NCBI GenBank assembly: GCA_009829735.1
Contig: CM020620.1
Coordinates: forward strand, 12,211,420 to 12,275,419
Length of the DNA stretch: 64,000 bases
Source: Pyropia yezoensis
Taxonomy: Eukaryota > Rhodophyta > Bangiophyceae > Bangiales > Bangiaceae
Direction of reading: 5' to 3'
The notes beneath the pieces are model-generated. The model did not search any database, was not told the origin of the DNA, and saw nothing but the letters and a program-made list of their open reading frames with translations. Position 1 is the first letter of the stretch. Every line of letters starts with the position of its first letter. Position numbers and translations under genes: made by a program. Positions 9,071 to 49,556 of the stretch are shown one piece after another.

Positions 9071-9074
9071 TTTA

Positions 9075-15488: not shown

Positions 15489-16223
15489 TCATGTCTCTCC
15501 CCCCCACGACCCCCTGCGACCTTGGACACCCACCTCCGTGGTGCTGGGCACGCTGGCAACCCTCTGTGTCCTCGACGTGGGTCCGTGTGAACCTTGACGG
15601 GACCCTCTTGACTGTCCTTGACCCTTCCACGTTGGTGCCCTTGGTGACTTGCCTCGCGGCGGGTGCCTCGTCCCACGCGGTGGTGTCCTTGGTCCTGGTC
15701 CCCCTTCTTTTCTTGGGTCCCTAGTACCTTGTCCTGTTGAACTGGTTGACTTCTTGGTTCCACGTTCCGTCGTTACCCGGCTTGTTGAACGCTTCCTTGA
15801 CGGTCCCCTACGTCCCGTGAACCTGTTGGTACTTGGACATGATGCCGCCTGGTACGGGATGCCTGGACGGTTGCACGTCGGTACCAGCACTTGGTTACAG
15901 GAGCCCATCGGTGCCACGTCCGCCGTCCGTCTTGTTCCCGTCGGTCCCCCCGGAGCCCATATGGTTGCCGGGCCCCACACGACCTGGGTACCCGTCCGGA
16001 GCGTGACGACCGCGTACGACTGGCCCGCCCCGGTTTCCTCTTGGTTCGCAGGTAGCACGCCTGGCCCCGTAGCGGGACCACCTTGAGCATCGCGTACGCC
16101 TTGCCCAGCTGGTACGCCGGACCCAGTAGCGGGGCCACCTTGCCCAGCTCGGTCACCTTGACGCACAGGAGCCCCAGGGCCCGCGCCAACAGGCGAACCC
16201 GCCGCGGCGCTGCCGGTAACCAT
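15489..16223 (-). CDS. Antisense ORF of element A (eroded)
   Basis: Between pol and the 3' LTR, on the strand opposite gag-pol, lies a frame of 244 codons from the ATG at 16223. It begins with collagen-like Gly/Pro/Ala/Gln repeats (AGQGVRDAQGGPATGPG) and then EETGAGQSYAVVTLRTG. That segment aligns with EERGAGQAYVTVHGTV in the antisense frame of element B (from 30939). After it A diverges into basic Arg/Ser/Gly-rich sequence and lacks the long folded region seen in B, so A's copy seems internally deleted or frameshifted. The function is unknown. Antisense ORFs in this position are described in some plant gypsy elements, but I recognise no family here. Confidence 0.45.
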   Translation of the reverse strand: MVTGSAAAGSPVGAGPGAPVRQGDRAGQGGPATGSGVPAGQGVRDAQGGPATGPGVLPANQEETGAGQSYAVVTLRTGTQVVWGPATIWAPGGPTGTRRTADVAPMGSCNQVLVPTCNRPGIPYQAASCPSTNRFTGRRGPSRKRSTSRVTTERGTKKSTSSTGQGTRDPRKEGGPGPRTPPRGTRHPPRGKSPRAPTWKGQGQSRGSRQGSHGPTSRTQRVASVPSTTEVGVQGRRGSWGGET

Positions 16224-16794
16224 AGGGGCCAGGGTGGAGGGGAGCGTGGTGGTACGGGTGATGGGGTACGTGGGCACGGAGACGGAGAAGGGGAACGAGG
16301 AAACGGGGTAGAACGAGGTGACCACGGGAAGCGCCGCGGGGACGATGGTACGATGGGACCCGGGTGCTGGGGACGAGGGAACCCGTGAGGGTGCTCTTAT
16401 CCACTGGCCCCCTGCGTTCCAAATGGTACCAGGGCTGCGCCCACGTTCCGCTGGCCCCCGCCTGTGCCCCTACACCGCGTCACCCCCCCCCTGGCGTGCA
16501 GCAACACATGGGGAGGGCGACGGGGAGGAGGAATGCGGGTGGGCGGCCGGCGCGGGCTGCGCCACACCCCCTTTGGTTCCTCTGCGCGTGGCCCACACCT
16601 CTCCTGTACCCGCCCCTGGCCAGTCTGAACGGGTTCCCCTGGCACGAGACACTTGTCGGGGGGGCCCTGTTGACAGACACTGGCCCCACAACCCGTTCGT
16701 TGTGGCCCTGTTGTAACTATTTCAGACGTTCCCCAGTCCCTTTCCTCGGTTTCCTTGTTGGCCGGCGGGACGCTCGGCCCTAATGAGGGGGCCA

Positions 16795-17436
16795 TGTGGC
16801 GTTCTGAGCCCCTGGGACCGTTGGAACCCGGGAGACTGACTTGGGACCCGGTTGGCAGCGTTACGTGGAACCACGCGCTGGCCGAGGATCCCTGCATCGG
16901 TGGCCCGGGGCAGTGGCGACACGCCCGGTGCCCTGATTAGTCACCCGGAGCGGTGGACTTGCCGGGTGGGGCATACTGACCTTCGGGTTATTTGTTTGAT
17001 TTTTCGCATTTGTTTTCCTTGCGTGATTTCGTGTCTTTCCCCTTTTTCCCACTGGGTTTTTTTTGAGATTGACATTTGTGTGTGGGGGGATTTCACTTGC
17101 TTTTTGTGTGTTGGCCCGGTGAGCGGCCGGTGCCTTGCTGGCACTTGGCCCGCTGGGGGCGTCCTCTGGGGGCCTCGCTCAGGGCCCCTGGAGGGGCCAG
17201 GGGGGGAGGTTCTTGAGGGGTGCTCCGGGGTTCTCCCCGGGGCCATCTTGTAAAATCAACAGTACTTTGGGTTCCCTCTCCCTCGGGCTTTTGTCCTGTT
17301 TACCTTTGCCTCGTATCGTGGCGGGCGAGTGGATCAGCAAGGGCTCTTACCTCTTCCTTCCTGGGCTTCGGACTGTGGTCTCTGTGTGTGTGGTTGTGGT
17401 TTCTGGGTCCGGGAATCTGGATCCCATTACGCTACA
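16795..17436 (+). repeat. 3' LTR of element A
   Basis: This 642-bp copy of the 5' LTR is preceded by the purine tract GAGGGGG (16785-16791), three bases from the LTR start. It is followed by ATGGG (17437-17441), the right target duplication. Confidence 0.93.
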
Positions 17437-17845
17437 ATGGGCACCGCCTGGGCACGGACATGTCAAAGGACACTGTATGCAGTGGGCCCGCTTGAGGGAG
17501 GGTACTGTCCGCACTTGAAGGGATGCCACATGGCACACGGAATGCTCACTGCGGGCATTGTACGCGTCGGGCTGGATCGAGGGCGCTCTGCGAGGACCAC
17601 AGCAAGGACGGCATCTCGCTGCCACGGAGTCGCGGCAAACAGCGTGGAAATGAGTGTCTATTTCTATCCCAATGTTCGGATTTTTCACTGCAATCATTGG
17701 TCCACAAACTGACCGTCGGGGCACGGAGTGGGCGGTGTGGTACGCATGATCCAGTAGGCATGGGGTTCTCCGTCCTTCCGGTCTTTATTTGCGGTTGCTT
17801 GCGGCGTGCACCCCCCCACCCTTTGTCGGGGTCCCCACTGGCACT

Positions 17846-23059: not shown

Positions 23060-23880
23060 GCAGCGGGTGGCGACGGCGGCCGGCTGCAGGGGGGGGGGAC
23101 GGGCAGGGGCGGCAGCCAGCAGCAGGGGGGGGGGGGGGCAAGGGTGGCAGCCGGTGGCAGGCGGGGGGACGGGCAGGGGCCGCAGCCGGCAGCAGGGGGG
23201 GGGGGCGGTCGTAGCGCCCGCCGCACCCCCGGCAGCCCGCTGCGGGGGGGGGGGGGGGGCATCGGCGACAGCCCTTGGCAGGGCGCGGGGGCGGTCAGGG
23301 GCGGCCGGCGGCGGGGGGGGGGGGTGGGCAGCGACAGCGGCCCCCAGCAGCGGGGGGGCCGTGCAGCGGCGGCGAGCCGCGGCAGGAGCCGGCAGCAGGT
23401 GGGGGGGGCGACCGTGGCGCCCACCACACCCCCGGCAGCCCGCTGCGGGGGTGGGGGGGGGCATCGGCGACAGCCCGTGGCAGGGCGCGGGGGTGGGCAG
23501 CGGTGGCAGCCGCCGGCAGCGGGAAGAGGCGGGCAGGGGCGGCAGCCGGCAGCAGGGGGGGGAGAGGGCAGCGGTGGCAGCCGGCGGCAGCGGGGGGGGC
23601 GGGCAGGGGCGGCAGCCGGCAGCATGGGGGGGGAAGGCTGCGGCGGCAGCCGGCGGCCTCGAGGGGAGGCGAGCAGCGGCGGCAGTTGGCAGCACGGGGG
23701 GGGGGCGGGCAGCGACGACGGCCGACAACAGATGGGCGGGCGGGCAGGGGCGGCAGCTGGCAGCAGGTGGGGGGGCGGGCAGGGGCGGCAGCTGGCAGCA
23801 GGTGGGGGGGCGGGCAGGTGCGGCAGCCGGCAGCAGGGGGGGGGGCGGGCAGGTGCGGCAGCCGGCAGCTGGGGTGGGGT
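23060..23880 (+). repeat. G-rich minisatellite with G-quadruplex potential
   Basis: An irregular tandem array of about 30-35-bp units built on GGCAGGGGCGGCAGCCGGCA followed by runs of 7-14 G. Units vary in G-run length and include some ACCGTGGCGCCC-like interruptions. The plus strand is strongly G-rich throughout. The long open frames here (Gly/Arg/Ala/Gln) are products of the repeat. Confidence 0.85.
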
Positions 23881-24493
23881 TTAAGGATATGCCCCCTAAT
23901 TCCCCAAGACTCTAGCTTCGGGGATAAGGACTGGGGCCTCTCCTTCCCTGTCCTTCTCTGCCAACTCCTTCCAAGACTCATCAACTCCCTGGTAATCTGG
24001 CGATGCCGCGGTGTCCGGCCGAGATTCTACGGGTGGCGGACGGTCAGCACGAGAGCCACGGATCGGCTACCCGTTAGTACCCTGACTCATCCCCGGAAGG
24101 ATATTTTCTCTCCGCGGATCAGAGGACTAACGGACCACAGGACAAGCCACATCTCTGACTCATCGGCCAGCCGGAACAATCTCCCCGCGAGCCAATGGGA
24201 ATGGCAAGATTTGCTGACCCACGGGAGATTTTCGCCCCGAAGACTGGCGTCTGGCTTACACGCCTCTGCGGCCTTTCCGGCCGACCGGCGTGTGAGGCCA
24301 GCCGCGCGGCGCCACGAGCGCCGCACGCCGCCCCCGCCCCCGCTTCGGGCTGTCTGGTGGGGCGCCTTGGGGCGCACACACCCACCTTGACTTGTTCTGG
24401 GAGCCTATGCCTTGTTTTGAGCCCATTGGTGCCGCCTCCCCGGCGGCACTGGCAATCGCATGCTTTGGGGCACCCTGTGTGCCCCCCCGGGGG

Positions 24494-24500
24494 TATATAA
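24494..24500 (+). promoter_or_regulatory. TATA box of zinc-finger gene
   Basis: TATATAA is preceded by C and G runs and lies 104 bp upstream of the ATG at 24604. The spacing leaves room for a start site near 24525-24530 and an A/C-rich leader (AACAACAAACACAGACAACG). Confidence 0.55.
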
Positions 24501-24603
24501 TGCGTGAGTGCGGGCGCCACCCGGGGAGACCTCGGGGGGAACAACAAACACAGACAACGACCTCCTTTACCCTCGAACCCCTCGACCCCCTCGACTCGCA
24601 CCG

Positions 24604-25600
24604 ATGTCACGCCCATCTTCTTCCCCACCCCCATCACCGTCACCCCGCCCGTCACCTTCCCCGCAGCCTCATTGGCTTGCACGGGCAGCTGAAACCGTTC
24701 ACCAGTTCGTTGAGGGCTGCCCGGGTGTGGGTGGTGCCTCACATGTGGTAGCTTCAGATAGTTTGACTTCCTCCTGTCGGTGACGTTGTGATTCCGTTCC
24801 CGATTTGGCCCCCCCTGCGTTTGTGCCCTCGTGCTGCCCCCTGTGTTCGGCGTGCCTCGGGCATTGTAATACGAACGCAGCGGGTTCCACGAATCACACC
24901 GAAAGAACACGGCCCTGACACTGCCCTGGTGGCCCCTGTCACGGTTTTTCTCTTTTGGTCAACGGATTGTTGAAACCCAGTGGGTGCCAAATCAGGTTCC
25001 AAACATTCTTCCTCGGCGTTGGCGGGCGCCCCGACTTCCTCGGCGGCGACTGCTCGCGCCCCGGCGGCGCGCGCGACCGCGGAGGCACGCGTCACCCAGG
25101 CGGCGCGCGCATCACCGGCGGCGGCATCCACGTCATCCTCTGTGCCGGCGACGGCCGACTCGGCGGCGGCAGCCGCGTCCAAGCCCCCCCTCTCGCGCAA
25201 GGGCAAGGGCCCCGCCACGCCCGGCTCGGCGGGCTCGGCCAGTCGGGGCCTGTTGCTGCCCCCGCTGGACCCTGCGCGGCGATACACTGCGCTGCCCGCC
25301 CCACGTATTGGGCACATCCGACCCACGGCGGCGCGCGCGGCGGAGCAGCGGGAGCAGCGCCGGATCGCCAAGAGCATCCCCAAGAAGAAGTACGTGTGCA
25401 AGTCCTGTGGCGTGCGTTGCAACAGCTTGACAGTGCTGCGCGATCATCGCTGGTCGCGGCGCCACCGCAATACGGTCAACCGTCCAGCCACGCGCCCGCG
25501 GTGCGACATCTGCGATCGCGAATTCGAGACGGTGGAACACATCGAACGCCACCAGCGTGGCGAGGATCACCACCGCACGCTGGCGCGCCACACCAGTTGA
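24604..25600 (+). CDS. Two-exon gene with two U1/JAZ-type zinc fingers
   Basis: Exon 1 starts at the ATG 24604 and encodes a Ser/Pro-rich segment then WLARAAETVHQFVEGCPG. Exon 2 (about 24981-25600) encodes an Ala/Ser/Thr-rich linker, then two fingers: CKSCGVRCNSLTVLRDHRW...H and CDICDREFETVEHIERHQRG...H. Both have CX2CX12HX5H spacing, typical of U1-type/JAZ fingers that bind dsRNA, DNA-RNA hybrids or DNA. Exon 2 has no ATG and opens just after a TGA (24971-24973), so a splice is needed. A phase-1 junction from a donor at 24725 (or 24731/24734) to the acceptor at 24980 or 24995 keeps the frame. A TATA box lies upstream. It could be a host gene or transposon cargo, since element E begins only about 350 bp downstream. 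Confidence 0.6.
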
Positions 25601-25956
25601 CATCTCGCAACACCCCCAAGGATCTGTGCGAGAGGCGCGATTTGCCACGTGGATTACCCCCCGCTTGGAAATCCGGCGCGACCCGACTCGGGCCCGCGCA
25701 CGGACGCCGGCAGCAAAACCCGATTGCATGTTTGAGTCGTCGAATTCTGTTTCATCGCATCACTTGTGAACCATCAAATAGTGTTGTACATCTTTGGGGT
25801 CGTTGCAGCCACTACGGCCGCACACGTCCAGAAGCTCGTGTACCACTACTTTGACGTATCAAATTACCTTGCACATCTTTAAGGACCTGCCCGGCGCCCA
25901 ACCGGAGTAAGTCGATTTAGATCTGCTTAGTTGATTTGATCGTTGCGATTTTTACC
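25601..25956. other. Leader region before element E gag; LTR not resolved
   Basis: A 5' LTR and primer site of element E should end in here. Without the 3' LTR (lost at the assembly gap) I cannot define the borders. No gene is seen. Confidence 0.4.
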
Positions 25957-26835
25957 ATGGATCCCCCTAATCCTTCTGGTATTAGCCCGACTACTCCAGG
26001 CACGGCCTCAACCGCACCCTCAGCGGAATCATGGAATCGACTAACTGCGTTCGTCTCGCAGATGAGCGCCGAACTCGAGGCTCACAAGGTAGAACTGGCG
26101 GACGCCAAGAAACAGCTGTCGGACGCCCAGGCCAAGACCACCGGTGCGGGCACAACGACTGCGAGGCCGCACAAGCCCGCACTGTTCTCCGGCAAGCCCG
26201 GGACAATTGAAGCGTGGTGCTCGCACATGGACTCTTATGTGCGGCTGACTGACCCTGACGAAGCGTGCCGGATCGCCTGCACCTACGTGGACGGTGAGGC
26301 GTTCACTTGGTGGCATACCTACAGTCGTACCATCGCGGTCCCCGACTGGACTGCCCTGCGGGCTGCGCTCATCCGTCGCTTCAGCCCACTGAACAGGACG
26401 CAGGCGGCGCGGGACAAACTGCACTCCTGGCGTCCAATCAAGGACGTCGGGACGTTCAACAGGACGTTCCTAAGCGTCCTCTTGGATATCCCCGACATCA
26501 CCGAAGCGGAAAAAATCGACCGCTATAGCCGAGGCCTTAAGCGAGACATCTGGCAGGCACTGTGCCTGAAGACCTACACGGATCTTGAGTCCCTTATGAC
26601 GGACGCCCTGCGCGTCATAGCGGCCAAGGCTGGAGCGTCCCGTATTACCAGCAATGTTAACAGCACTTCTGGGAAGCCACCGACGACGGTTGTTATCCCA
26701 ATGGAAATTTCCAGCATCAAGGTCGACAAGCTGACGCCAGACGAACGCCAGCGCTGTATGCGCGAGGGTCTGTGCCTCCGCTGTCGCGAGAAAGGGCACT
26801 TGGCTAAGGACTGCCCAAAAGGCCAGCGGAACTGA
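25957..26835 (+). CDS. gag: Gag of element E
   Basis: A 292-residue Gag from the ATG 25957, in an ACC context. It has a short coiled-coil-like helix ([20 protein letters not shown]), then a capsid domain of the retrotransposon-gag type ([40 protein letters not shown]), and a zinc knuckle [14 protein letters not shown] (CX2CX4HX4C) near the end. The stop falls five codons after the heptamer C CCA AAA. Pol is open in the -1 frame here, so a Gag-Pol fusion is probable. The frame itself is intact, although pol is broken. Confidence 0.9.
26814..26820 (+). promoter_or_regulatory. Putative -1 frameshift heptamer of element E
   Basis: CCCAAAA is in the phase C CCA AAA relative to gag, directly after the zinc knuckle and 12 bases before the gag stop. 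The -1 frame continues as [18 protein letters not shown] into the protease. Confidence 0.6.
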
Positions 26836-29800
26836 AGCAGCAACCGTCATCAACACTTGTGAAAGACGCTTCTTCGGTTCCTGAAAATATGTCGTCACCG
26901 TTTGAAGGCCCGCGACTCGGGCTTCTGCTTTCTACTGCTTCTGTCAATGGCAAAGTTATTAAGGTGCTGTTTGACGACGGATCTCCCATCAACTTCGTCT
27001 CAAGGCGCCTCGTGACCTCCCTGCTTGTGAACACTAAGGAAACGGACTTTGCGGCAAGCATGCCCGATGGCCGCTCTCATGTCCTCGCTGAAACCATTGA
27101 ATCCCTTGAGATTCACATTGGACCGTATCAAGAACGACCACGATTTGCTGTATGTGACTTAAACGCATACGACCTCATCCTGGGAAAGAAGTGGCGCGAT
27201 GACAAGGACGCCAAAATCAACAACAAGAAAAACAAGATCTCCTTCAAGTTCAACCACAAGAACATCTCTATCACAGCCTCCCTGAAGAAGCCTGAACCCC
27301 TGATCAGTCGGCAACGTCTCGCCCGGGACCTCGTCCGAAGGTGCCCGATTTTTGCCATCTACCTGCAGTCCGAAGATCCCTCTACCAACTTCGACATTAA
27401 CGCCATTTCGATGGGACACGCCGACGACAAGAGAGAAGTTCAAGAGATTCTCAAAGAAAACGCCGACGTCTTTCCAGACGCGCTCCCCGACGGACTTCCT
27501 CCTGAGCGCAGTCACAAGTTTAGCATCAAACCTACCGACGATGCCCAGCCACGTCGTAGCGGAATTTACCGCCTGGCCGAATGGGAGCTCGAAGAACTCA
27601 AGACCCAACTTGCCGTCCTAATAAGGAAGGGATTCATCCAACCGAGCGCCTCACCGTGGGGCTCTTCCGTCCTCTTTGCGGCAAAAAAGGACGGTGGCTG
27701 GCGAATGTGCATCGACTACAGGGCCCTAAACAAAGCCACCATCAAGAACGCGTATCCACTACCACGCATCGACGACATCTTCGACCAACTGCGAAAGGCC
27801 AAGTACTTTACGAAGATCGACCTCCGTTCTGACTACCACCAGATTCGCCTTGATCCGGAAACAATACCTCTGACGGCGTTTCGAACCAAGTACGGACTCT
27901 ATGAGTTCACGTTCGTACCCTTTGGTCTCACGAATGCACCCGCGGTCTTCATGAACCTAATGAACGCTGTCTTCAGACCCTACCTGTACGACTTCATCTG
28001 CGTCTACCTCGACGACATCCTGGTCTACAGCGAAACAAATGACGATCACCTCAAGCACCTAAGATTAGCACTCGACAAACTACGAGATCACAAGCTCTAC
28101 GCCAAGTTGAGCAAGTGCCAATTCGCTCGGACCACTGTGGACTACCTCGGTCACGTCATCTCCGAGAAAGGCTTCGCCATGGAAGACTACAAGGTCCAAG
28201 CCATTCGTACATGGGCAACACCGAGAAGCAAAAAGGACGTGCAATCCTTCCTCGGTATGGTCAACTTCTACCGCAGATTTATCAAGGGAATGGCGGCCGT
28301 AGCCACGCCTTTGACGAGGCTGACTGGGAATGTCGACTTCGAGTGGACCCCAGACGCCCAGAAAGCTTTCGAGCAGCTGCAGAATCTGACAACAACCGCA
28401 CCAGAACTAAGGCCTTTCGACAAGAGATATCCAATCTACGTGTCTACCGATGCCAGCGGATATGCTGTTGGCGCAGTCCTTGAGCAAGATGACGGACGCG
28501 GACGGCGTCCAGTGGCATACTTCTCGTTAACTCTCAACATCCACGAGCAACGCTACAGCATTCGTGAACGAGAACTTCTTGCAGTCGTACAAGCCATCCG
28601 CCATTGGCGCTGCTACCTCTACGAAGACCCTTCGAGGTCCACACCGACCATGAGCCCCGGAGATACCTAAGAACCCAAGAAAAGCTCAACGATCGTCAAG
28701 TCAAATGGCTGGAGCTTCTGGACCAGTTCCAGTTCAAGATTGTCCCCATCAAGGGCACTTCAAATCCCGTGGCTGATGCCCTTTCCAGGCAGCCACAAGA
28801 TGCTCCCGACAAGCACGCCCCCGATCAAGACCTCCTTAGTCGCGTGCTGGCCAAGACCATCAAAGCCATCCCCAAGAAAACTGAAATCAACAACCTCATG
28901 ACCATCAACCAAAGTGATCAAGACCTTGCCACCTTAGAACAAGAGTACGACTCGGACCCCGAGTTTGCCGACCTAGTCAAAGACCCGGTATCTCCCTACC
29001 GGCTGCACATGAGGTTGTTGAAGCGAGGTGACGGTACGTGTATCCCTGTCGGTACTCTACGCCAAAGACCACTCCACGACTACCACGATGTCCCGTGCCA
29101 AGGGCACATGGGAGTCAAGAAAACAACGAAGGCCATTTCTTCGAAGTACTACTGGAAAACAATTCGGAAGGACATCCAAAGATACGTACAAACATGTGAT
29201 TTGTGCCAGCGAAACAAGGCTAGCACCCATTCACCTCTGGGTCACCTCAAACCTCTAAATCCCCCGAACCAACGATGGGAAAGTGTCTCCATGGACTTTA
29301 TCACGCCTCTTCCTCTGACTCCAAGAGGTCACAACGGGATTTACGTCGTTGTCGACCGCCTCTCCAAAATGATTCGCCTCGCCCAATGAAGCCGGACTGT
29401 ACCGCGCCAGTTGCAGCACAGCTCTATCACGATCATGTCTATCGACACCACGGACTCCCTGCTGATGTCGTCTGCGACAGGGACCGCATCTTCTTCTCCA
29501 ACTTTTGGCGGTCACTCACGGAGATCCTCAAAGTCAAGGTCGACGCATCTTCAGCCTACCACCCGCAAACTGACGGACAGACTGAGATTATGAACAAGAA
29601 GATTGAGGAAATCCTGCGAAATTTCGTCAACCATCACCAGGGCGATTGGGACCTATTCTTGGTTGCTGCTGAAGTAGCCTACAACCGGTCGCCAAATGCT
29701 GTGACGACGTACTCACCCTTCTTCCTGAACTACGGATTCGAACCCAAGACAGTTCCAATGGACATCCTCGACAAGTCAGAATCAAGTATACCTGCAGTGT

Positions 29801-30074
29801 CTGACTGGCTAAGCGGTCTCCATCGTGCTCAGGAGACTGCCATATCAGCCATCAAGAGTGCAAATGAGGCGCGCTCGGCGTACGCAAATCGCCATCGCCG
29901 ACCTTGCAAGATTGCCGTCGACGATCTGGTGCTTCTAAGTACCAAACACCTTATGCCAGACGCCTTCCAAGGCGCTCGGAAGCTGATGCCCAAGTACTCA
30001 GGACCCTATCGCGTCACTGAGAGCATTAATGATGTGACTTTCCGACTGGATCTTCCCCAAGCGGTGCTCGATCG
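26820..30074 (+). pseudogene. pol: Pol of element E, two frameshifts, truncated by gap
   Basis: Order of parts: protease ([13 protein letters not shown], with Asp where Ser/Thr is usual in D-S/T-G), reverse transcriptase ([19 protein letters not shown] near 28003), and RNase H ([14 protein letters not shown] near 28440). The integrase H2C2 zinc region is near 29080-29225 (HMGVKKTTK...CDLCQRNK). The integrase core has SMDFITPLPL and, after the second shift, CDRDRIFF and HPQTDGQTEI. The first frame ends at 28670 and the true continuation is in another frame from about 28635 ([13 protein letters not shown]). A second shift lies near 29385, just after VVVDRLSKMIRLA. The sequence ends in the gap within the C-terminal integrase region. 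Catalytic residues other than the protease Ser/Thr look conserved, so decay is recent. Confidence 0.85.
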
Positions 30075-30477: not shown

Positions 30478-30751
30478 CCCATGGGGTGGGTGAGGTGGCG
30501 TCGGGATGCGGACGGGGGCCGGCGGCACACGGGCGCAGCCTGGGTTCCGTCGGAGTGGGGGCCCAGGGATAAGAGGGCCCTCACGGGCTCCCTCGTTCCC
30601 CGCGACCGGGACCCCAACGCACCATCTTCCCCGCTACGCTTCCCCGTGGGCTCCTCAATCGTTCCCTCTACCGTTCCCCTTTCCAACGTTCCCACGCACC
30701 CGTTCCCCTGGTACCCCCACTTTCCCACACCGTGACCCGTTACCCCGTCCC

Positions 30752-32360: not shown

Positions 32361-32953
32361 GATCGTGGACCGTAATGGTATCCGTGGGGATCTGGGGTCA
32401 GAGTTGGCCACGGCCGAGGAGGAGGCTCGTAAGAGTTGGCATGGGGTTCGTGAGGGTTCCCGGGTCCGAGGTCGGGACGACATGGACCAAGACACTGACC
32501 CCCGTGCCGAGAGCCGGGCCCGTTACCAGTGAGTCACACGGAGGGGAGGGACCCGAGGGACCATGGGTTGTTCTCGCGTATGATGTTGATCCAAGGAGTT
32601 ATAAAGTCTCTTTGTTTGTCAGCTTCCTTGGGACCCCTCCTTCAGTGTTGACCGTAGGAACCTCCTTCCGACTTAGGCGCATAGCTGGTGCAAAGGGACC
32701 CCATACTAGCCCAGACTGGGAAATGGGGAACTAAAGGAAACTGAAGGAAAGCGGGGGAGTTCATATCCAAGGGGGACGAAGTAAATCTCCATTCCAAAAA
32801 ACATTATCAATAAAACCCCACCCGTGGGTTAGATGTCTTCCCCACCTACCCGAGTTGAACCCCTGACCTCTTTGTTGCCCCCTTCCGATGACTTTCCCTT
32901 AGTTCGTTCCATTGACGGACCATCATGCCTGCCCTTGGGCTTCCCTTTCAGGG

Positions 32954-35900: not shown

Positions 35901-37215
35901 ACCGAATGGGTTTGGCCCCTTCCTTGAGGGTAATCCGGTGAGGGGTCACATCAATGCGTCCCAGTTTCCCGTTCCATAGGTCCTTGTAACGGTCCAAAAG
36001 TTCCCGTACAGCCTGGTGCAGCTCAGGCGGGATGAAATCATACGCGACCTTGGGCATCTGGACCGGGGTTCCGTCAGGCTTCTTGTCCGTCGTGTCCGGC
36101 TCAGGGACCGTGGTTCCGGCGGGTCCCTTGGGAGTCACGTCCTCCGGTGCCGACGCTTGGCTCAACGGGTTCCCTTGCTCCGGGCCCAGGGTGACAAGTG
36201 GTGCCGCCCCTTCACTAGGGGCCGACAAGTAATCAGCAGGGACCTCGAGCACGGGACCATCGTACGGTATGGCCACGCCAATGGCAAAGTTCTTGGGCAT
36301 GTTGACAGCTGGGTCCGAGATGTTCATAACATGGATCCGAAAGTCCCGTCGGGTCCGTATCGTAGCCAGTGCGTTGTGTAAACGGAGCCCCCTCATAGCC
36401 ATCTTATGGGGCCTCTCGTACAATAAACACTTCCCATTGGTACCGCACTTGACATAAACCGCTTGTAGGGACCGAGGAGCCAAAGTCACGCCCTTGGACA
36501 GGTACAGGGCCGAGGGATCTTGACGGATAGGGCTGCCCTTGACAGGAAAAGCGCTCTGGGCCTTGCCCTCCCAGGTCCTCTTGGCGTAGGACAGGAACCC
36601 AAGGTTCCAAAGGACCGACTCGGTCCCAGGGTAGATAGCCTTGACATGTTCCTTTTGGAAGTCCATCCCAAGGATCAATGGGACAGAAAGGGCCCTGACG
36701 ACAAGGAACTCGAACTCCATCGGCTTCCCGTTGACAATGACCGATAGTTCCAGGACTCCCCGGGCGTTGAGCAGTTGCCCGGAAGCGTCACAAACATGGG
36801 TAGACTTAGGAGCCCTAGAAGCCAATCGTTGCCATCCACAGGGTAAGATGTCCTCGCGTCCCACACTGGGTCCCGCGCCTGTGTCCAAAATGGCCGTCGT
36901 TTCCTTGGGGTCCTCTTGGTCCAAACGTACAAAAGCATTCAAAGCGAAGTTCCTCTTACGCAGTACAAGCAAGGTGCCCTTGAACCCATATGGCTTCTTC
37001 ATTCCCAATCGACGTCGGAGCCCAGACTTGGACCGCCGTGCCAAAGACGGTAAACAGGAAGAAGGGGTGGGCAAAACAATAGGAGACTCAGAACGAACAG
37101 GTACAATGGGGCCCTTGAAGATCTTCGAGAACCCCAGCTTGGTTGCAAACGAGCAGGTACTGTCCCGACGATGGGGAGGGGACCTCTTGGATCCGCCCCC
37201 CGTTACTCTTTTCCC
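32954..37215 (-). pseudogene. pol: Pol of element B, frameshift and nonsense codon
   Basis: Very similar to A's Pol. From the -1 slip site it reads RVTGGGSKRSPPHRRDS, then protease TAILDTGAGPS, RT YLDDIIVFS, RNase H YIVDTDASATQIG, integrase zinc region HEPGHAGHPGMNK and the DDE core to GLLGIKHV. There a small deletion near 33870 shifts the frame, and the first frame ends at 33820. The true continuation (HHQTQGQVERFNRT) runs to a TGA near 33470, where A has Trp in GDWVYV, and resumes to a chromodomain (WLLVRWWGYADFEDTWEP) ending at 32954. The broken integrase makes it non-autonomous. Confidence 0.9.
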
Positions 37216-38909
37216 GAGGGTCCCGGCTCCTGGGAACCGACGGTAACATGGCACATTTGGTCCGCCTCATCATCTGACAAGTTGATCCCTTTACACAGAG
37301 CCTGGACCACGGCAACACGTATCTGGCGATGGAACTGACGGTCCGCGTTGGGCTTGACCTCGGTACTCTGGCTCCGGCCCCGAGTAGCCGCAAGGAAGAA
37401 GTCCCGGGCCTGGATAACCGCTTTCCGTTGGGCCTCGGATATCATGGAACATTGATGGGCAATGTGCCCCGGTTCCCAGCAAAGGTAACAACGGTACGGG
37501 CGCCGGCTATCCATGGTACGTACCCCCACGAACTGGGGCGCGGATCCCTTGAACCCAAACACTTGGCCCGACCCGCTCTTCTCAGTTTCCTTGTCAAGAG
37601 GGCCCTGAAGGATCGTCGAGGGGCCCATAGGATTGACTGCCATTATCGGTGACGGGTCCAGGGTGGGCTTAGCCCGAAAATCAGTAGGCCTGCGGGCGGA
37701 AACAGAGGGACCAGCCTTACTCGAAGAGGACCCTTGGGCCATCTTAATAACGTCCGTGGCTGCCTTGTACTTGCCCGCAGTAAAAGTAACCAACTGCTGG
37801 TACGTACGGTCGGGAACATTGTAGACAAACGCGTCAGTGCGCAGGTACTCAGGGAGCCCTTGGATCAGCTGCTGTTTCATGGTGCCCTCGGTATGGATAA
37901 TCCCGCACAGTTCCGTTAGGCCCCGGAGACGGACCGCGAAGGCTTCGATGCCCTCGTCTGGTTCCTTAGCTGCCCGACTGAACCTGTCCTGTGCCAGGGC
38001 CAGTGCATGGGGCTCTGCGTACGTCTCTAGGAACCAGTTAACGGCCTCTGGGTAACTTGTGATCGAGGAGCCATTAGACGCGCTGGAAGAATCCGGACGG
38101 GCCCGTGTGTACCGTAGTTCCGCGTCACCAGAAAGGAAATGTGGGATCGCATAAAGGGCCATGCCTTCGGAGATCGCGTTGTCGTTACAAGCCTTTACCA
38201 GTTTGCGGAGCCACGTGAAAACTTTCAGGGCCTCCTTACCAGAGAAATTAGGGTACCCAGCGAAAGAGTGCTTCATGTTACGCGCGACCCGTCCCATATT
38301 ACGAGCCTCACGCGTCCCATAGGTAGCCTTCTTGTTCCTCAGAAGGTACGTACGGTAATCTGGGACCCGAGCAAAGCGATCATCTTAACACTTGATGACC
38401 TGGGGCTCGGTCCGTGGGTACTCAGGGGTCTCAAGGTCCTCCTCATCCAGGACAGAAGAAAACGTGGTACCCGAGGAAGAGGACGTACAGGAACCACTGG
38501 AATGGTGACGACGCCGACGACGGCGGAAACGGGAACGATTGGAACGACTGGTATCATGGGACCCACCCTGGCCAGCAGGACTCTGGCTCAGGGCCTGAGA
38601 TACAGTAGCCAAAATCTCATCTCGAAACGCTTCCAGAGTAGTAACAATGTCTTGGGACCCAGCAACAGGAGCCAAAGGTGGAACTCGGGTCCCTGTCTCA
38701 GAACCCGTGTCCCGACGTAAATTCTGACCCATAGTAGCCCGAATCCCACCCGGGGGCTCTGTCCCCCGACGCGGAATCCCTGTCTGCCCGCCTCCGCCAC
38801 GGCCCAACGGACCCGAGGGACCGCCACGACCGCGACCAGCGGGAGTAACCATAGAAGTGCCCGACGGCGCACCACGGCCCCGACCTCCCGAGGGAACAGG
38901 GTCCGTCAT
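37203..38909 (-). pseudogene. gag: Gag of element B with one nonsense codon
   Basis: Homologous to A's Gag over its full length, from the ATG at 38909 (MTDPVPSGGRGRGAPSG) to ...PSGKE. A TAA at 38387-38385 replaces the TCC (Ser) codon of A in QVIKCSDDRF. The rest of the frame, including the capsid region and the zinc knuckle CYLCWEPGHIAHQC, is intact, so this is a late mutation. Confidence 0.9.
37209..37215 (-). promoter_or_regulatory. Putative -1 frameshift heptamer of element B
   Basis: On the minus strand GGGAAAA precedes GAG TAA exactly as in element A. Heptamer, phase and downstream -1 peptide are all conserved between the two. Confidence 0.65.
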
Positions 38910-39029: not shown

Positions 39030-39046
39030 CCCTTGCTGCTCCACCA
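39030..39046 (-). other. Primer binding site of element B
   Basis: The minus strand reads TGGTGGAGCAGCAAGGG, four bases inside the LTR. It differs by one base from the site of A. Confidence 0.75.
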
Positions 39047-39050
39047 TAAA

Positions 39051-39704: not shown

Positions 39705-40026
39705 TGCGTACCCGCCTATGGCGGGGTTGAAGTCAGCGTCGAGCTGGCGACGCAACCATGGTGTCATGGCGGATGCGTTCCGCACCGATATAACGTGTGC
39801 GTTGCAGACCGGTAACGGTCGCGCGCCGGTGTACACTGCCGTGCGCCCGCCTCTGTGGCAGGAGGGGTGGGATCCCGCCCCTGCTTTCCGGTTTGACACC
39901 GGCTCCTGCCTCCGATACTTCAGGAGTGTGTTTGCCTTCCGGCCGGTCCACCCATTGCAGGGTACCTTCGCCCTTGAGGTTACCCTCGGGCAGGCTTCCT
40001 CCTTCTTGCTGTCCGTCCGCCGGCAG
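39705..40026 (-). pseudogene. Fragment of antisense frame, probably element D, between B and C
   Basis: This 322-bp island lies between the outer ends of the B and C LTRs. The minus strand carries an open frame (ADGQQEGGSLPEGNLKGEG; YIGAERIRHDTMVASPARR) with its stop at 39733-39735. Read leftwards, it is where the antisense frame at 48969-48809 would continue after element C, so I infer it is D sequence split by C and cut again by B. There is no independent similarity to prove this. Confidence 0.35.
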
Positions 40027-40495
40027 TGAGGCAAAAACCACATACACACACGGCACCCAAGTTGGGGCGGTGTGCAAGGGCTGCCTCCCGTGTCGGGGGA
40101 ACCGGAAGAAGTGCAAGTCGCACACACTCTGTCCCTGTTGTGGGGCAAACCCCCCACGGACAAACAAGAGGATGGTGTGTGGTCCAACAGTTTCTTGGTC
40201 GGGACGGGGACGCAGGGCCAAGCCCCGCTGTCCCTCCCCTTATCCTCCCAGGGTCCCCTCAGAATCTCGCCACTCAGAATCTCCCACCCCAGCACCTGCC
40301 CACCGGGCCACACGAAAATTCAAGACGATAAATGCAGAAAACCCTCAAATCCAAGTTGGATTTACTACTAAGCTAACTATCCCAAACTTAGGGAATATGG
40401 ACCCAAATGCAGGGGGAGGAACGGATCAGGCTAGTGGCCTGCCGCCCCTTGCATGGCACGCGTTGTTCCTGTACCTGGGGGTCGATACTGCCACA
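40027..40495 (-). repeat. 3' LTR of element C
   Basis: This 469-bp direct repeat of 48340-48808 starts TGTGGCAG on the minus strand. A purine tract GAGGAGAGGGGAG (minus strand, 40508-40496) lies immediately next to its start, as expected for plus-strand priming. Confidence 0.9.
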
Positions 40496-42183: not shown

Positions 42184-42294
42184 TTGGCAGCTGCCTTTGT
42201 TGTGAGAGTGTGAGGGTTAGGGCTGTAGTTAAAAGCCACTCTGCGTACCACTTCGACTTGAAGCACTCTCTTGGCACTGTTGCTCGGCCTTCCC

Positions 42295-45200
42295 TCACGT
42301 TGAGGGAGGGCTGTTAGGGTCTATCTCATTCCGGGCACAGTACGCCCGGACCTTCTGAGCGAGAAGGTCCTCCACATACTTCCACGTATCGTCCTTGGCT
42401 TTGTAGCCAAACCAACGCACCCTCAACATGAGGCGGTTAGTGTCCTCATCCCATCCGTGGTCGATGAACTTATCGAACACGTACTCCTGCGGGCCCTGTT
42501 TGGCCGCAGGCAGTGAGGGGAGGCGCCACGCTTCCAAAGCACGCGCCCAAGCTGGGCCGCCTGCAGGCGGTGGTGCAACTTTGACCACGTCCTGTCCGTT
42601 CACTGTGCGGACCCCATCGTCACTTTCGATGGTGAAACGCCGCCCATCAGTACGAAGGACCTGGTACGGCCCCTTCGTCTGGAATACCAGCTTACCCCCA
42701 GTTGGGGTGTGTGAGTGAACCAGCACCCAGTCACCCTGTTCGGGGACATGCTTAGCATTGCGCACTTTTTTGTCAAAGGTACGCTTGTAGCGCTTTTGTG
42801 CTTTGTCCATCTCAGCCCTGACTTTAGGGATGAGGTGTTCCAGCCTAGCAGCGAACTCCGCCTTACTCTCAGTAGGAGTAGGCGTACTGCCACTATCCTC
42901 CCCAGTTGGGAGCGACCGCCGCACGGCAATAGACCGCACGCGACGGGGTGTCACAAAAGCGAGGGGTACTTCCCCGGTAGATGAGTGAACCTGCGAATTG
43001 TAGGCGGTAGTAAGAATAGAAATGTATTGGTCCCACGTCTTCACGTGCTCACTCACATAGTGGCGCAGCTGCCTTACAATAGTTTTGTTGAAGCGCTCCA
43101 CCTGCCCATTAGTTTGTGGGTGGTAGGGGGTGGCATAGTTTGCCTTAACCCCCAACATATCCAGCACTCCCTGAAACAGTACAGACGCAAATTGCGGTCC
43201 ATTGTCCGATAGTGTACTATCTGGGATGCCATACGCGGCAACCCAGTGATCTAGGAAGGCTGACACGACCGACATGGCCGTGATCTCTGCCAGTGGGATC
43301 GCTCGCGTAAGTTTCGTGAAGCGGTCACAGATGACCAGGAGGTACTGGTTGCCCTCCTCGGTCACTGGCAGTGGCCCAAGGATGTCCATTGCCAACGCGG
43401 CGAAGGGCTCCTTGGCCGGGAACAATAGCATAGCCGTACTAGGCCGTCGTTCCATCAGACGGTTCTGTGCACAACTTGTGCAGGCAGCCACCCAACTGTA
43501 GATGTCCACCACCATGGACGGCCAGTAGTACCTGGTCCTCAGGGTCTGGTACAGTTTACTAGACCCCAGGTGTCCACCCGTGGGAGCGTTGTGCTCCCTC
43601 TCAAGGATACTGTCCTTGAGGGATGCGGGGACGACAAGTTGTTCAGTCCCCTGGAATACCCCCCTCCTCATGAGGAGGCCATCGTCTCCCAGAAAGAAAC
43701 GCGTCTCAACCACTGTATCCAGTGTATCCCTCTGCGACTTGCAGAAGGGATCCTCGGCCTGGGCCTTCACCACCTCGTCCAGGGACAGGGGCAAGTACTT
43801 CTTGTTCCCTGGCGCCTCGGGGTTCAACGCCTGACCCGAGCGCGTGACTACCCCCACGATGGGGATGTCCTCATCGACTGGGTTAGTGTCCAGCCCCTTG
43901 GTAGGTACCCGAGAGAGGCCGTCGGCAAGGGCATGTTGCCTGCCAGGCCGGTACTCAATGTCAAAGTTGAAGGGTGCCAGTCGCACCCTCCACCGATTGA
44001 GACGAGTGTTCGTACAGTCCGTCTTAAAGATGAACTGCAACGCGCGGTGGTCACAGCGGATGAGGAACTTCTCACCCTCTAGGTAGTGACGAAGTGACGT
44101 CACCGCCCACACCACTGCGAGTCCTTCCAACTCGGTGACTCCGTAGTTCTTCTCGGCCGAGTTCAGCCCCTTGCTGAAGTATCCCACCGGCAAGTACTTC
44201 TGGTCCGGCTGCTGCTGAAGCAACACACAACGAAGTTGGTCGTAGCTAGCGTCCACATCCAGGATGTAGTGGCCTCCCAACCTGGGAATAGCCAGGATAG
44301 GGGGCTGCAGCAGAAGGTCCCGAAGAGTCTCAAAGGATTCCTGCTCCACCCGACTTGGGGGAGGCAGGTTCTTCGGTAGCGTTGAGCTCACTAACTCATT
44401 CAACGGCTTCGCCACCTTGGCGAAGCCCTTGGTGAAACGTCGGTACACGTTACACATCCCGAGGAAGCTCCTCATCTGGGTCTGGGTCCGGGGGTACTGA
44501 GCCTTACGGATGGCCCTCAAGTTTTTCTCGTTGACACTGAGACGCCCCGGACTGACAACATGTCCCAAGTATTCCACCTCTTGAGTAAAGAGGTGGCACT
44601 TGCTCGCCTTCAGTGACACACCGCCGTCAGCAAGTAGCTTGAACACCTGGCCAAGATGGCCAATGTGTTCCTCCGGACTTCGGGAGAACACAATGATATC
44701 GTCTAGGTACACAAGACAGATCTGCCACCGTACTCCGGCCAGAATCATGTCCATAGCGCGCTGGAAAGCTGCCGGCGCGCTACACAGACCAAACGGTAGA
44801 CGCTTGCACTGGTAGGTACCACAGTGACAGGTAAAGGTAGTTTTATGCCTGTCCTCCGGGGCAATGGGAATTTGCCAGTACCCCGCGTTACAGTCTAGGG
44901 TAGAGAACACGTTTGCCTCCCCCAGAGAGTCCAGACAGTCGTCCATCCTAGGTAGGGGATAACTGTCCTTCACCGTGCTCTCGTTGAGCTTACGATAGTC
45001 GATACAGGACCGGGGGGTCCCATCAACTTTGGGGACGATAACCACCGGACTCGCCCACTCGGCGTTGCTGGCCTCGATCACATCGAGGGCCTCCATGCGA
45101 GCAACTTGCTCCTTAACGAGGGCCCTTGAACGAGGTCCTCCCCTATACGATTGTTGGCGTATAGGGAGTGCACCGGGCTTCAACTCGATCCGGTGTTGGG

Positions 45201-46277
45201 TGGCTCTCATGAGTCCCAATTGACCATCCCACAACTTGTGATATTGGTCCAAGAGGCGTTCAACTTGAACCCTCAACCTGGGGGGGACACCCTCCATGTT
45301 CACATGGGGCCGAGGAGAGGCGGCCGACTTGGCTTGATGCTTCTCCTTTCCGGACTTCGGGTCGCTACTTGCGCCCGCGTTGAGGGTGACCGCTACTACC
45401 GGTCCCTCGTGTTGGTCGATATAGCCGAACTTGGCTCCCGACTTGAAGTACTGGGGCGACGAGCTCAGGTTCATCACCTGGATCCTCCACGGGACTCCGG
45501 CTTTGGAGTCCATCGTGCCAAGGGCAACATGCACTTGGTGCTTGCGAGCAAGACGGGGGTGAGGGTGCACCAACCCGTTCCCCGTATAATCAGTTCCAAC
45601 ATCAACGTGCGCCACCGAGTTGGGGGGCAACGTGACTTTACGGGCTAGACGCAGGGTAGCAGTAAACCCTTCCCTCACGGAGCAAACAGGCTTCGACTGT
45701 GAAACTGTCACAGGAGCCACAGACTTTCCCTTACCAAGGATGGGGATAGTCTCCCCATTCATCAACTTGACCCAGTACTCAGGGCCACAAATCAAAGGCA
45801 CTTGTGTAACAATATAAGGGGTACCCAGAAGCAGGGGTACCGATATATTCTCAACTACACCATAGGTCACGTCGACCTCATGGGTCCCCAACCTAGTTGG
45901 TAGGGTCACGGCACCAACGATGGGAAGTACCCCACCATTGATGTCAATCATATGGTCAGCTTTGGACCTCCAGCGTTGGAGCTTCACCTCCTTTGGTAGT
46001 AGCGACTTGCGTATCAAGGAGGCTCCTGACCCGGTATCAAGTACGATACGGGCACAACAGCGCGGCCGGGGGCAAGTTGCACCCGTCCAGCCACCTGGAA
46101 GTTCTCACCCGTCAGCACCGCGATGACCCGACGTGGGTTTACGTTCTTGGGGAGTCCTACCCGAGGTGGGCGGACTCCCTTAGGTCGCCGCAGTATCCGG
46201 CACGGTTGGTTCGTCCTTCGGGCCCACTTGGCCGAGGCTGCCGTTGTGAGCTTCGGACGACCAGCCCCAACGGTCAT
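42295..46277 (-). pseudogene. pol: Pol of element C (PR-RT-RH-IN-chromodomain), one frameshift
   Basis: It begins at an ATG that overlaps the gag stop (ATGA, 46277-46274). The first frame (MTVGAGRPKLTTAAS...NFQVAGRVQLAPG) ends at 46014, but the protease motif VLDTGSGA and the remaining 1,240 codons lie in another frame, so a 1-base-type shift near 46075 separates them. In the long frame I see RT CIDYRKLNE and VYLDDIIVFS, RNase H LDVDASYDQL, and integrase H2C2 GGHLGSSKLY...CTSCAQ. The DDE core follows (AMDILGPLP; SDNGPQFAS; HPQTNGQVERF), with a chromodomain near the end (LMLRVRWFGYKAKDDTWK). All catalytic motifs are present; one mutation, or an unrecognised recoding event, stands between this and a full protein. 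Confidence 0.9.
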
Positions 46278-48220: not shown

Positions 48221-48318
48221 GTTGGCTGACGATCCGTATGACACGGTCCAAGTCCACCGTTCCTCTGAGACAGAGGGCGCCCCACACCCGGGTGCACCCG
48301 GAGTTAAAGTTTACCTCT

Positions 48319-48337
48319 GTCCCCTGCTGCTCCACCA
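48319..48337 (-). other. Primer binding site of element C
   Basis: The minus strand reads TGGTGGAGCAGCAGGGGAC, two bases inside the LTR. It is identical over 19 bases to the site of element D. Confidence 0.8.
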
Positions 48338-48339
48338 AA

Positions 48340-48808
48340 TGTGGCAAAAACCACATGCACACACGGCACCCAAGTTGGGGCGGTGTGCAAGGGCTGCCTC
48401 CCGTGTCGGGGGAACCGGAAGAAGTGCAAGTCGCACACACTCTGTCCCTGTTGTGGGGCAAACCCCCCACGGACAAACAAGAGGATGGTGTGTGGTCCAA
48501 CAGTTTCTTGGTCGGGACGGGGACGCAGGGCCAAGCCCCGCTGTCCCTCCCCTTATCCCCCCAGGGTCCACTCAGAATCTCGCCACTCAGAATCTCCCAC
48601 CCCAGCACCTGCCCACCGGGCCACACGAAAATTCAAGACGATAAATGCAGAAAACCTTCAAATCCAAGTTGGATTTACTACTAAGCTAACTATCCCAAAC
48701 TTAGGGAATATGGACCCAAATGCAGGGGGAGGAACGGATCAGGCTAGTGGCCTGCCGCCCCTTGCATGGCACGTGTTGCCCCCCTACCTGGGGGTCAATA
48801 CTGCCACA
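48340..48808 (-). repeat. 5' LTR of element C
   Basis: This 469-bp LTR starts TGTGGCAG and ends GCCACA on the minus strand, a good inverted terminal motif. It is about 98% identical by eye to 40027-40495. Confidence 0.9.
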
Positions 48809-49556
48809 GGGGCCACACGAACGGTCACCCGGTCGCCTTCGTCCTCCGACGAGCTCGCTAAGAAGCACTCGGCGGCGGTGGCAGAGAAGAGGGCGTCGTC
48901 CACCATCACCTCTTCCTGCTCCTCAAGCAGGAGGTCGTCCTCGCCCCCGGGTACCTGGGGGTCCGACATGGTGAAACCGGGGTAGCAGGGGCGTCCCGTG
49001 CCAAAGAGCCGCAGCCGGCTCGACCCGGTACGAGGAACGCTCGCGCGGACGAGCCAGGGAAGCGCGGGCACCCGCGCTTATAACCACACAGCTCGACACG
49101 AGCGATACGGTAGCGCGGGACGACCCGCGCCAGCCGAGCTACGAGGGCGCTCCACCCAGGCACCTGGATCGGAGCCACGCCCCCCCTTACGGGGTGACCA
49201 AGGGGGGTCACCCCCAACCGCTCCCACGCAACGCGGGCAGCTCCTGCCACCCACTCAATCGTCCCGCGAGAGGGGCCCCCCTACCACCAGACGCCTGGTG
49301 GCGGATCCGCTTGCACCACCCCTCGGAAGGGGGGGTCGTGAACAGAAACCCGCATCGGGAAGTCAACGGTCCGGAAAACGGATCGTGTGTGTACCACACA
49401 AAGAAGGGCCCCCCCCCCAGACAACCTCGAAAAGGGGTGTCTGTCGCGATAAGGCGCAAAGCCCCACCCGACTGGTAAACGGTCACGCGACCCACTTACA
49501 TTCGGTAACCCGAATGCAACTCGACATGAGGACGGGCCGAATCTAAGGGGGGAATA
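48809..49556 (+). mobile_element. 3' internal part of element D with truncated antisense frame
   Basis: This ends in the purine tract AAGGGGGGAA (49545-49554) directly before the D LTR, so it is the 3' end of D's interior. On the minus strand an ATG at 48969 opens an acidic frame (MSDPQVPGGEDDLLLEEQEE ... ASSSEDEGDRVTV) that reaches the element C border at 48809 after 53 codons. Position and direction match the antisense frames of A, B and C. The rest (48970-49556) has no convincing frame. Confidence 0.6.

What the first reader, a model, noticed from the sequence alone, without database searches (positions are those of the whole stretch)
15489..48969. Antisense gene between pol and the 3' LTR in four related LTR retrotransposons
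Elements A (15489-16223), B (30752-32360), C (40834-42183) and D (48969-48809 and probably 40026-39733) each have a frame on the strand opposite gag-pol, in the same slot and pointing from the 3' LTR towards pol. In B and C the products look globular, with codon use like pol. The complementary strand gives only Pro/Gly/Arg-rich shadow. Antisense ORFs are described for some plant gypsy elements (for example Grande and Retand relatives), but I recognise no family here. Occurrence in four lineages of one locus suggests a retained function, such as a regulator, RNA-binding or anti-silencing factor made from an antisense promoter near the 3' LTR.
Basis: partly seen in the sequence, partly recalled or inferred. 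Interest (0 to 1): 0.9.

Follow-up and report, generated by a model that had tools for sequence, protein, structure and literature searches.

The report
Antisense gene in nori retrotransposons
Jumping genes of the edible red seaweed nori carry an extra gene written backwards between their enzyme genes and their far end; natural selection has kept its protein working across distant families of these elements, although no known protein family we searched resembles it, so it is probably a helper gene for the element's own spread.

Summary
The genome is Pyropia yezoensis (scaffold sizes match). In chromodomain Ty3/gypsy elements the slot between pol and the 3' LTR holds a gene on the opposite strand. 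Copies elsewhere encode one uninterrupted protein (546-789 aa in nine loci); the window copies of B, C and D are broken. B, C and D belong to one protein family diverged to about 20-30% identity. In 8 of 8 further loci, chosen for long frames, and in D, pol lies on the opposite strand beside the gene. Purifying selection is clear: dN/dS 0.23-0.42, and shared polymorphisms are mostly synonymous while singletons look neutral (B p=1.6e-10, C p=9e-4). Corrections: A keeps only about 70 codons, the rest being unrelated sequence without selection in this frame, although A's pol stays constrained; D's second piece is on the plus strand; B ends near 32529. Another chromovirus here (E) lacks the gene in 3 of 3 copies. 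The architecture is known from plant Grande/Retand elements, but no TRP28, PMD or other Pfam domain matched. Function is unproven; a trans-acting accessory regulator is my best guess.

The parts
30752..32529 (+). Element B antisense gene, broken copy (several frameshifts); L010 encodes 591 aa uninterrupted
   Evidence: tblastn of the L010 frame: pieces 93-100% identical at 30933-31709, 31687-31983, 31964-32284, 32359-32529; intact frames; length
30478..30751 (+). B slot upstream of the antisense ATG: putative antisense promoter side (inferred), cut by the assembly gap
   Evidence: N run 30075-30477; the LTR-proximal 540 bp of the A slot is 78% identical to B copy L010
40834..42183 (+). Element C antisense gene, copy with an internal deletion of about 593 bp and one stop; L049 encodes 647 aa uninterrupted
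16010..16223 (-). Element A: remaining N-terminal part of the antisense gene (about 71 codons)
   Evidence: slot positions 244-786 93% identical to L069; ATG position derived
15489..16009 (-).
   Evidence: no match to L069 or L010; dN/dS 0.82, shared vs singleton p=1.0
48809..48969 (-). Element D antisense gene, first about 53 codons, interrupted by C
   Evidence: tblastn of the L083 protein, residues 1-110 at 48969-48682, 59% (the end runs into the C LTR)
39706..40026 (+). Element D antisense gene, middle part, inverted relative to the first piece
   Evidence: tblastn residues 382-507 at 39667-40050, 84% identity
10984..15168 (+). A pol (RT, RNase H, integrase, chromodomain-like end)
   Evidence: Pfam
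9212..10918 (+). A gag (zinc knuckle, below the Pfam cut-off)
   Evidence: Pfam
8428..9070 (+). A 5' LTR (3' LTR 16795-17436, 99.2% identical; ATGGG on both sides of the element)
32954..37266 (-). B pol, broken copy
   Evidence: 84% DNA identity to A, 39704-32949 vs 8428-15173; ORFs
42295..46104 (-). C pol
   Evidence: 43.6% protein identity to A pol; ORF
40027..40495 (-). C 3' LTR (5' LTR 48340-48808, 97.7% identical)
23871..30074 (+). Element E, a different Gypsy element whose other copies lack the antisense gene (negative control)

Best explanation
A clade of chromodomain Ty3/gypsy elements in Pyropia yezoensis carries a third, ancient protein-coding gene on the antisense strand between pol and the 3' LTR. 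It is an accessory gene. I infer that it is transcribed from its own promoter in the roughly 0.3-0.6 kb next to the 3' LTR, convergent with gag-pol, so that it is not part of Gag-Pol. Shown: homology, intact frames in many copies, purifying selection during the elements' active life, position and orientation beside pol in every locus sampled, and absence from three copies of element E. Shown for lineage A: loss of the gene's body while pol stays constrained, which implies that the product is supplied in trans or is dispensable in cis. Inferred: a soluble protein (no clear membrane segment in 8 members tested) that acts outside the particle, most likely a nuclear regulator or counter-silencing factor for the element (about 0.4), otherwise a particle or trafficking helper.
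For: One homologous protein family across B-like, C-like, L075-like and D-like lineages. Long intact frames: of the 150 rows listed for a 200-aa C core, 118 (counted by eye) have exactly a 724-codon frame (rows are ranked by match, which favours intact copies); B and relatives. dN/dS in the antisense frame: 0.415 within C, 0.228 C vs L073, 0.326 within B, 0.251 B vs L069, 0.240 L075 vs L076, 0.315 D; noncoding upstream control of B 0.69-1.04 over six frames. Singleton vs shared polymorphisms, syn/nonsyn: B 94/218 vs 68/35, p=1.6e-10; C 53/120 vs 29/22, p=9e-4. Pol on the opposite strand in 8 of 8 sampled loci and in D. E: no family match in 3 of 3 copies. A: antisense parts p=0.78 and 1.0, pol end p=0.02, pol dN/dS 0.320.
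Against: No transcript or protein evidence. Many copies are broken: 9 of 20 C and 9 of 16 B copies have at least one in-frame stop; L072 has a stop after 422 codons. The complementary frame that shares the third codon position also gives low dN/dS (0.32-0.52) and significant shared/singleton tests (B p=5e-4, C p=2e-3), though it holds 14-25 stops per copy. AATAAA was found downstream only in the B family (4 of 12 loci; up to 700 bp looked at, 410 bp for C). Basic clusters are inconsistent between members, and peak hydropathy in L075/L076 (1.59) lies just under the usual 1.6 mark (recalled). D shows no similarity to the L075 group and only weak similarity to B. No domain or credible fold match; structure model pLDDT 30. 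The eight distant loci were picked for long frames.
Confidence: 0.75

Rival explanations
1. Shadow frames: long antisense frames arising from high GC and codon structure, not genes.
For: 62-65% GC in the four slots; long frames occur by chance (null mean 196-249 codons).
Against: 0 of 500 shuffles in each of 4 slots reach the observed frames; selection signal; complement frames hold 2-25 stops per copy in B and C; protein homology across families at about 20-30% identity.
Confidence: 0.03
2. The protein is structural or a trafficking helper (capsid-associated or movement-type) rather than a regulator.
For: Large protein with a conserved globular-looking core; function unknown; no domain match.
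Against: No clear membrane segment, so not obviously Env-like; antisense orientation would need transcription separate from Gag-Pol.
Confidence: 0.25
3. The antisense transcript, not the protein, is what matters (convergent noncoding RNA or dsRNA).
For: Convergent arrangement; such roles are discussed in reviews (PMC7264820 section 8; PMC10186651 abstract).
Against: Synonymous changes accumulate while amino-acid changes are held back.
Confidence: 0.05
4. Descent from the plant Retand/Grande antisense genes (TRP28) or PMD proteins.
For: Same slot and orientation (PMC7264820; PMC11963269).
Against: No Pfam match at E<=10 in 10 of 10 members; no PF04195 or PF10536 match in this genome at E<=1 (controls rang in 1 of 14 genomes below cut-off and 0 of 14, so weak evidence); host elements here have a chromodomain-like end while Retand is non-chromovirus.
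Confidence: 0.05
5. A host gene captured once by an ancestor of this clade and kept; function follows the host gene.
For: Single origin fits homology in the lineages seen; pol-end and antisense identities correlate (Spearman 0.70 over 23 of 28 possible pairs, non-independent).
Against: No Pfam or credible PDB relative; no host homolog identified, but the genome lists were truncated and not checked locus by locus for this.
Confidence: 0.15

Closest known systems
Antisense additional ORFs (aORF-3R) of plant LTR retrotransposons: maize Grande gene23, rice RIRE2, Silene Retand ORF4
   Same: Gene between pol and 3' LTR, antisense to gag-pol, kept in most copies of a family (PMC7264820, abstract, first part and sections 7 and 8 read)
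   Different: Those named are in flowering plants; Retand elements are non-chromovirus and 97% of clusters have TRP28 antisense ORFs (PMC11963269 abstract). Here: red alga, chromodomain-like pol end, no TRP28/PMD match
Plant mobile domain (PMD) in Gypsy elements
   Same: Extra domain in Ty3/gypsy elements; a counter-silencing role has been proposed (PMC8616336 passages; PMC9289625 passages)
   Different: No PMD match in the members scanned or in the genome (control silent)
Retroviral antisense genes (HTLV-1 HBZ, HIV-1 ASP)
   Same: Antisense gene under a promoter on the 3' LTR side (PMC10186651 abstract)
   Different: No sequence comparison made; HBZ and ASP overlap or lie near sense genes (recalled), whereas no open sense frame spans this slot in B or C
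Env-like sense ORFs of plant Gypsy elements
   Same: Same slot (PMC7264820)
   Different: Opposite orientation and no clear membrane segment

Membership tests
aORF-3R class (antisense additional ORF between pol and 3' LTR) | Position between pol and 3' LTR | tested here: met
   A and C in the window, B in copies L002-L008; the LTR side was not checked for L069-L076 or D, whose pol side was
aORF-3R class (antisense additional ORF between pol and 3' LTR) | Antisense to gag-pol | tested here: met
   8 of 8 sampled loci and D; A, B, C
aORF-3R class (antisense additional ORF between pol and 3' LTR) | Present in most copies and conserved like other element proteins | tested here: inconclusive
   Conservation like pol ends: met; fraction of copies not measured without bias (searches are capped and ranked)
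aORF-3R class (antisense additional ORF between pol and 3' LTR) | Own antisense transcript | not testable with these tools
   no RNA data
Retand/Grande-type antisense gene (TRP28) | TRP28 domain (PF04195) | tested here: not met
   0 of 10 members, D 0, 0 in genome (control weak)
Retand/Grande-type antisense gene (TRP28) | Non-chromovirus host element | tested here: not met
   chromodomain match at the A pol end, E=2.5e-5, 24.6 bits vs cut-off 25.1; pol ends of other families align with it
PMD-carrying Gypsy element | PMD (PF10536) | tested here: not met
   0 of 10 members; 0 in genome (no control genome rang)
Env-like gene | Transmembrane segment and sense orientation | tested here: not met
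   (hydropathy only; 1.59 maximum)
Ty3/gypsy chromovirus (host elements) | RT, RNase H, integrase with C-terminal chromodomain | tested here: met
   A by Pfam, chromodomain just under cut-off; L010, L049, L069, L070, L072, L074-L076 by alignment of the pol end only; D integrase only

The most novel reading that the evidence does not exclude
A previously unrecognised, deeply diverged protein family, encoded antisense in most or all lineages of a red-algal chromovirus clade and co-inherited with pol, arose independently of the flowering-plant Retand/Grande antisense genes and acts in trans. Lineages such as A, which discarded the gene yet kept a constrained pol and spread, live off the product of their relatives. 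Antisense accessory genes would then be a repeatedly evolved feature of Gypsy elements.
Probability: 0.5. Interest if true: 0.75.

Novelty: new variant of a known kind. Interest (0 to 1): 0.62.

Why it matters
Antisense genes of plant retrotransposons are known but their function is unsolved (PMC7264820, PMC11963269). A second, apparently unrelated protein family in the same slot, in red algae, with clear selection and thousands of first-look candidate loci (1891 and 3133 scored in each), gives an independent system in which to ask why Gypsy elements keep a gene on the wrong strand. The natural loss in lineage A offers a ready comparison between relatives with and without the gene.

Tried and rejected
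Rejected: my first reading of B as a spliced gene with an intron near 31635-31709; other copies read straight through. Rejected: the missing stretch in window C as splicing; it removes coding sequence. Rejected: the A frame as a gene over its whole length; in the A replacement the lowest dN/dS (0.57-0.64) is in two other frames, which I did not pursue. At first I rejected D because the family representatives gave no tblastn hit there; the D protein from L083 overturned that. By-eye guesses of a KDZ transposase at 19349-21589 and a helicase at 49811-50644 found no Pfam support at E<=0.01. Weak PDB matches to ribosomal protein eL6 (E 0.35 and worse) are treated as chance. Viral contigs: 16 pattern stretches, 0 relatives. 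NCBIfam: one match at E 0.17, treated as chance. Single-sequence structure model useless.

Literature: in 5.39 million open-licence PMC papers, searches for Porphyra + LTR retrotransposon + antisense (4 papers), plant mobile domain + retrotransposon + antisense, Pyropia + retrotransposons + Gypsy + red algae, red alga + Gypsy + ORF terms (47 papers, 10 listed), Neopyropia + retrotransposon, antisense ORF + LTR retrotransposon (14 papers, 12 listed) and antisense open reading frame + retrotransposon showed no title or abstract start about antisense genes in red algal elements. Papers opened, and only in part: PMC9289625, PMC7423979, PMC8616336 (passages), PMC10186651 (abstract), PMC7264820 (abstract, first part, sections 7 and 8), PMC11963269 (abstract and passages). 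The rest were seen as search listings only.
Full report
Where it is. The window lies at C3:12211420-12275419 of a 107.5 Mb genome in 11 contigs. The three large contigs (43.59, 34.33 and 29.39 Mb) equal the three scaffolds reported for Pyropia yezoensis, 43.6, 34.3 and 29.4 Mbp (PMC7423979, passages). The same paper reports 48.0% repeats with LTR retrotransposons predominant.

Elements in the window. A (+): LTRs 8428-9070 and 16795-17436, 99.2% identical, flanked by ATGGG on both sides. Pol has RT, RNase H, integrase and a chromodomain-like end at 24.6 bits against a cut-off of 25.1. B (-) is 84% identical to A from LTR to the end of pol (39704-32949 vs 8428-15173), but the slot beyond pol differs; its 3' end is lost in an assembly gap at 30075-30477. 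C (-): LTRs 40027-40495 and 48340-48808, 97.7% identical. C pol is 43.6% identical to A pol. D is an element split by C.

Copies elsewhere are intact. B: stop-to-stop antisense frames of 651 codons in L009, L010 and L012 and 627-709 in L016-L019, L021 and L023, while the window copy is frameshifted. C: the uninterrupted 724-codon frame in 10 of 20 fetched copies; 11 of 20 have no in-frame stop on the alignment. The window copy lacks about 593 bp and has a stop. A tblastn with 232 aa of B listed matches from 100% to 29% identity, many with open frames above 400 codons (150 of 1891 candidates scored). With 200 aa of a C protein, the 150 listed rows were 99-100% identical and 118 (counted by eye) had exactly 724 open codons (150 of 3133 candidates scored). 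Both lists are ranked by match and truncated, so they show abundance, not unbiased fractions.

One protein family. I took 8 further loci from the list, preferring long open frames. Their antisense frames are 422-796 codons. blastp among the representatives links the B-like, C-like and L075-like groups (E 5e-5 to 7e-16 in a 17-sequence set). Profile comparison gives E 4.8e-12, 5.4e-17 and 1.2e-7. The shared core reads like 'EF ... R-x-x-Y ... P-x-W-W ... VEVPxG ... YF' (not every residue in every member). One D copy elsewhere (L083) carries a 789-aa frame that matches C collinearly (blastp 1.4e-6; hhalign probability 80, E 1.4e-5) and B weakly (blastp 0.05; hhalign probability 62, E 7.7e-5), but not the L075 group (probability 0.3).

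Position. tblastn with A and C pol finds the pol end on the opposite strand 220-390 bp past the antisense stop in L069-L071 and L074-L076 and about 980 bp past the first stop in L072. In L073 it finds an RT-region fragment overlapping the end of the frame, so that copy is rearranged. Thus 8 of 8 have pol on the opposite strand and 7 of 8 have the pol end. D: integrase on the opposite strand, 43.5% identical to C. Identities of the pol end and of the antisense protein correlate (Spearman 0.70, 23 of 28 pairs; 5 dropped for short overlap); pairs are not independent and the pol stretches are short.

Selection. Pairwise NG86-type estimates in the antisense frame: C within 20 copies 0.415; C L049 vs L073 0.228; L075 vs L076 0.240; B within 16 copies 0.326; B vs L069 0.251; D L083 vs L081 0.315. 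For B, 16 of 26 fetched loci were used; truncated or distant ones were dropped. Four of the five other frames give about 1 or more. The fifth, the complementary frame sharing third positions, is also low (0.32-0.52), as expected from shared wobble sites, but it holds 14-25 stops per copy in B and C. Noncoding upstream sequence of B gives 0.69-1.04. Pol ends in the same copies: C 0.256 (97 codons) and B 0.531 (66 codons, 15 copies), A 0.320. Singletons, mostly post-insertion changes, are near neutral (syn/nonsyn B 94/218, C 53/120; neutral nonsyn:syn site ratio 2.75-2.81), while changes shared by two or more copies are mostly synonymous (B 68/35, p=1.6e-10; C 29/22, p=9e-4). In the wobble-sharing complement frame the same test is weaker (B 58/45, p=5e-4; C 30/26, p=2e-3). 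This is the pattern of a protein that mattered while the elements were active.

A is a loss lineage. Its slot matches L069 at 93% over the LTR-proximal part including about the first 70 codons, then about 700 bp without a match, then the pol-proximal 127 bp again (95%). The 10 full-length copies used (of 14 fetched) plus the window align over the whole slot. Constraint is weak in the shared N-terminus (0.60) and absent in the replacement (0.82-0.88), with shared/singleton p of 0.78 and 1.0. Yet pol keeps dN/dS 0.320 and p=0.02 (9/3 vs 21/40, small counts). So A multiplied after losing the antisense body: the product works in trans, or A does without it.

Negative control. Element E (gag and RT by Pfam) is another Gypsy element with a chromodomain-like pol end by eye. 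In 3 of 3 fetched copies no family member is found (E<0.1). In L077 and L078 sequence matching the stretch upstream of E's gag (23871-24743, taken as its LTR) follows pol within a few bases; in L079, an 83% subfamily, the match to that stretch starts only further on. The RT region of E is 36-38% identical to A and C, while A and C-like RT share about 61-62% (L057 and L073). The gene therefore marks a clade, not every Gypsy element of this genome.

What the protein is. No Pfam match at E<=10 in 10 of 10 members, none at E<=0.01 for D, no credible PDB or NCBIfam match. No clear membrane segment in 8 of 8 (highest 1.59, in L075/L076). C has an arginine/serine-rich tail, not shared by all. The only structure job, on one window sequence, gave pLDDT 30. 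AATAAA lies about 280 bp past the stop in the 4 B copies tested, but in 0 of 8 other loci.

Comparison with the known. Antisense genes in this slot are known in plants (PMC7264820, parts read): Grande gene23 is nuclear and has its own promoter; functions are unknown. Retand elements, in that survey of Viridiplantae found in Eudicotyledons and Liliopsida only, are non-chromovirus and have TRP28 antisense ORFs in 97% of clusters, with a suggested regulatory role (PMC11963269, abstract and passages). PMD proteins encoded by elements have been suggested to counter silencing (PMC8616336, passages). Here the anatomy is the same, but the domains tested were not found (the controls for these two families rang in 1 and 0 of 14 genomes, so absence from the genome is weakly shown). 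It works like an aORF-3R; it is not filed as a Retand/Grande-type gene.

Mechanism, with confidence. Real protein-coding gene under selection: 0.95. Own antisense transcript starting beside the 3' LTR: 0.8, inferred. Acts in trans: 0.6, inferred from A. Nuclear regulator or counter-silencing factor: 0.4, by analogy only.

Noticed in passing
30075-30477: Run of N joins the 3' end of element E to the broken slot of B. Near-identical copies of the E end (C3:12160050, 12175920; listed as 100%) and of B (C3:12195724, opposite orientation, 99.6-100%) lie just outside the window, so local duplication, inversion or a misassembly is possible.
   Followed up: partly
23871-30074: Element E, a Gypsy element with lower GC over pol (about 53%); many copies, and a second subfamily at 83% identity.
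   Followed up: partly
40020-48815: No matching target-site repeat was seen at element C's ends, and its two flanks are inverted pieces of element D, suggesting rearrangement.
   Followed up: partly
1911-2271 and 49557-49917: Inverted repeat at 96.7% identity; both places match sequence next to a D copy in L081.
   Followed up: no
22957-23879: Very GC-rich (about 75%) degenerate repeat array next to the putative E LTR; similar sequence follows the LTR-like stretch in L077.
   Followed up: no
19349-21589: 747-codon open frame with no Pfam match at E<=0.01.
   Followed up: partly
L009, L010, L012, L016, about 280 bases past the antisense stop: AATAAA on the antisense gene's strand in these 4 B copies but in 0 of 8 other loci looked at.
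   Followed up: partly
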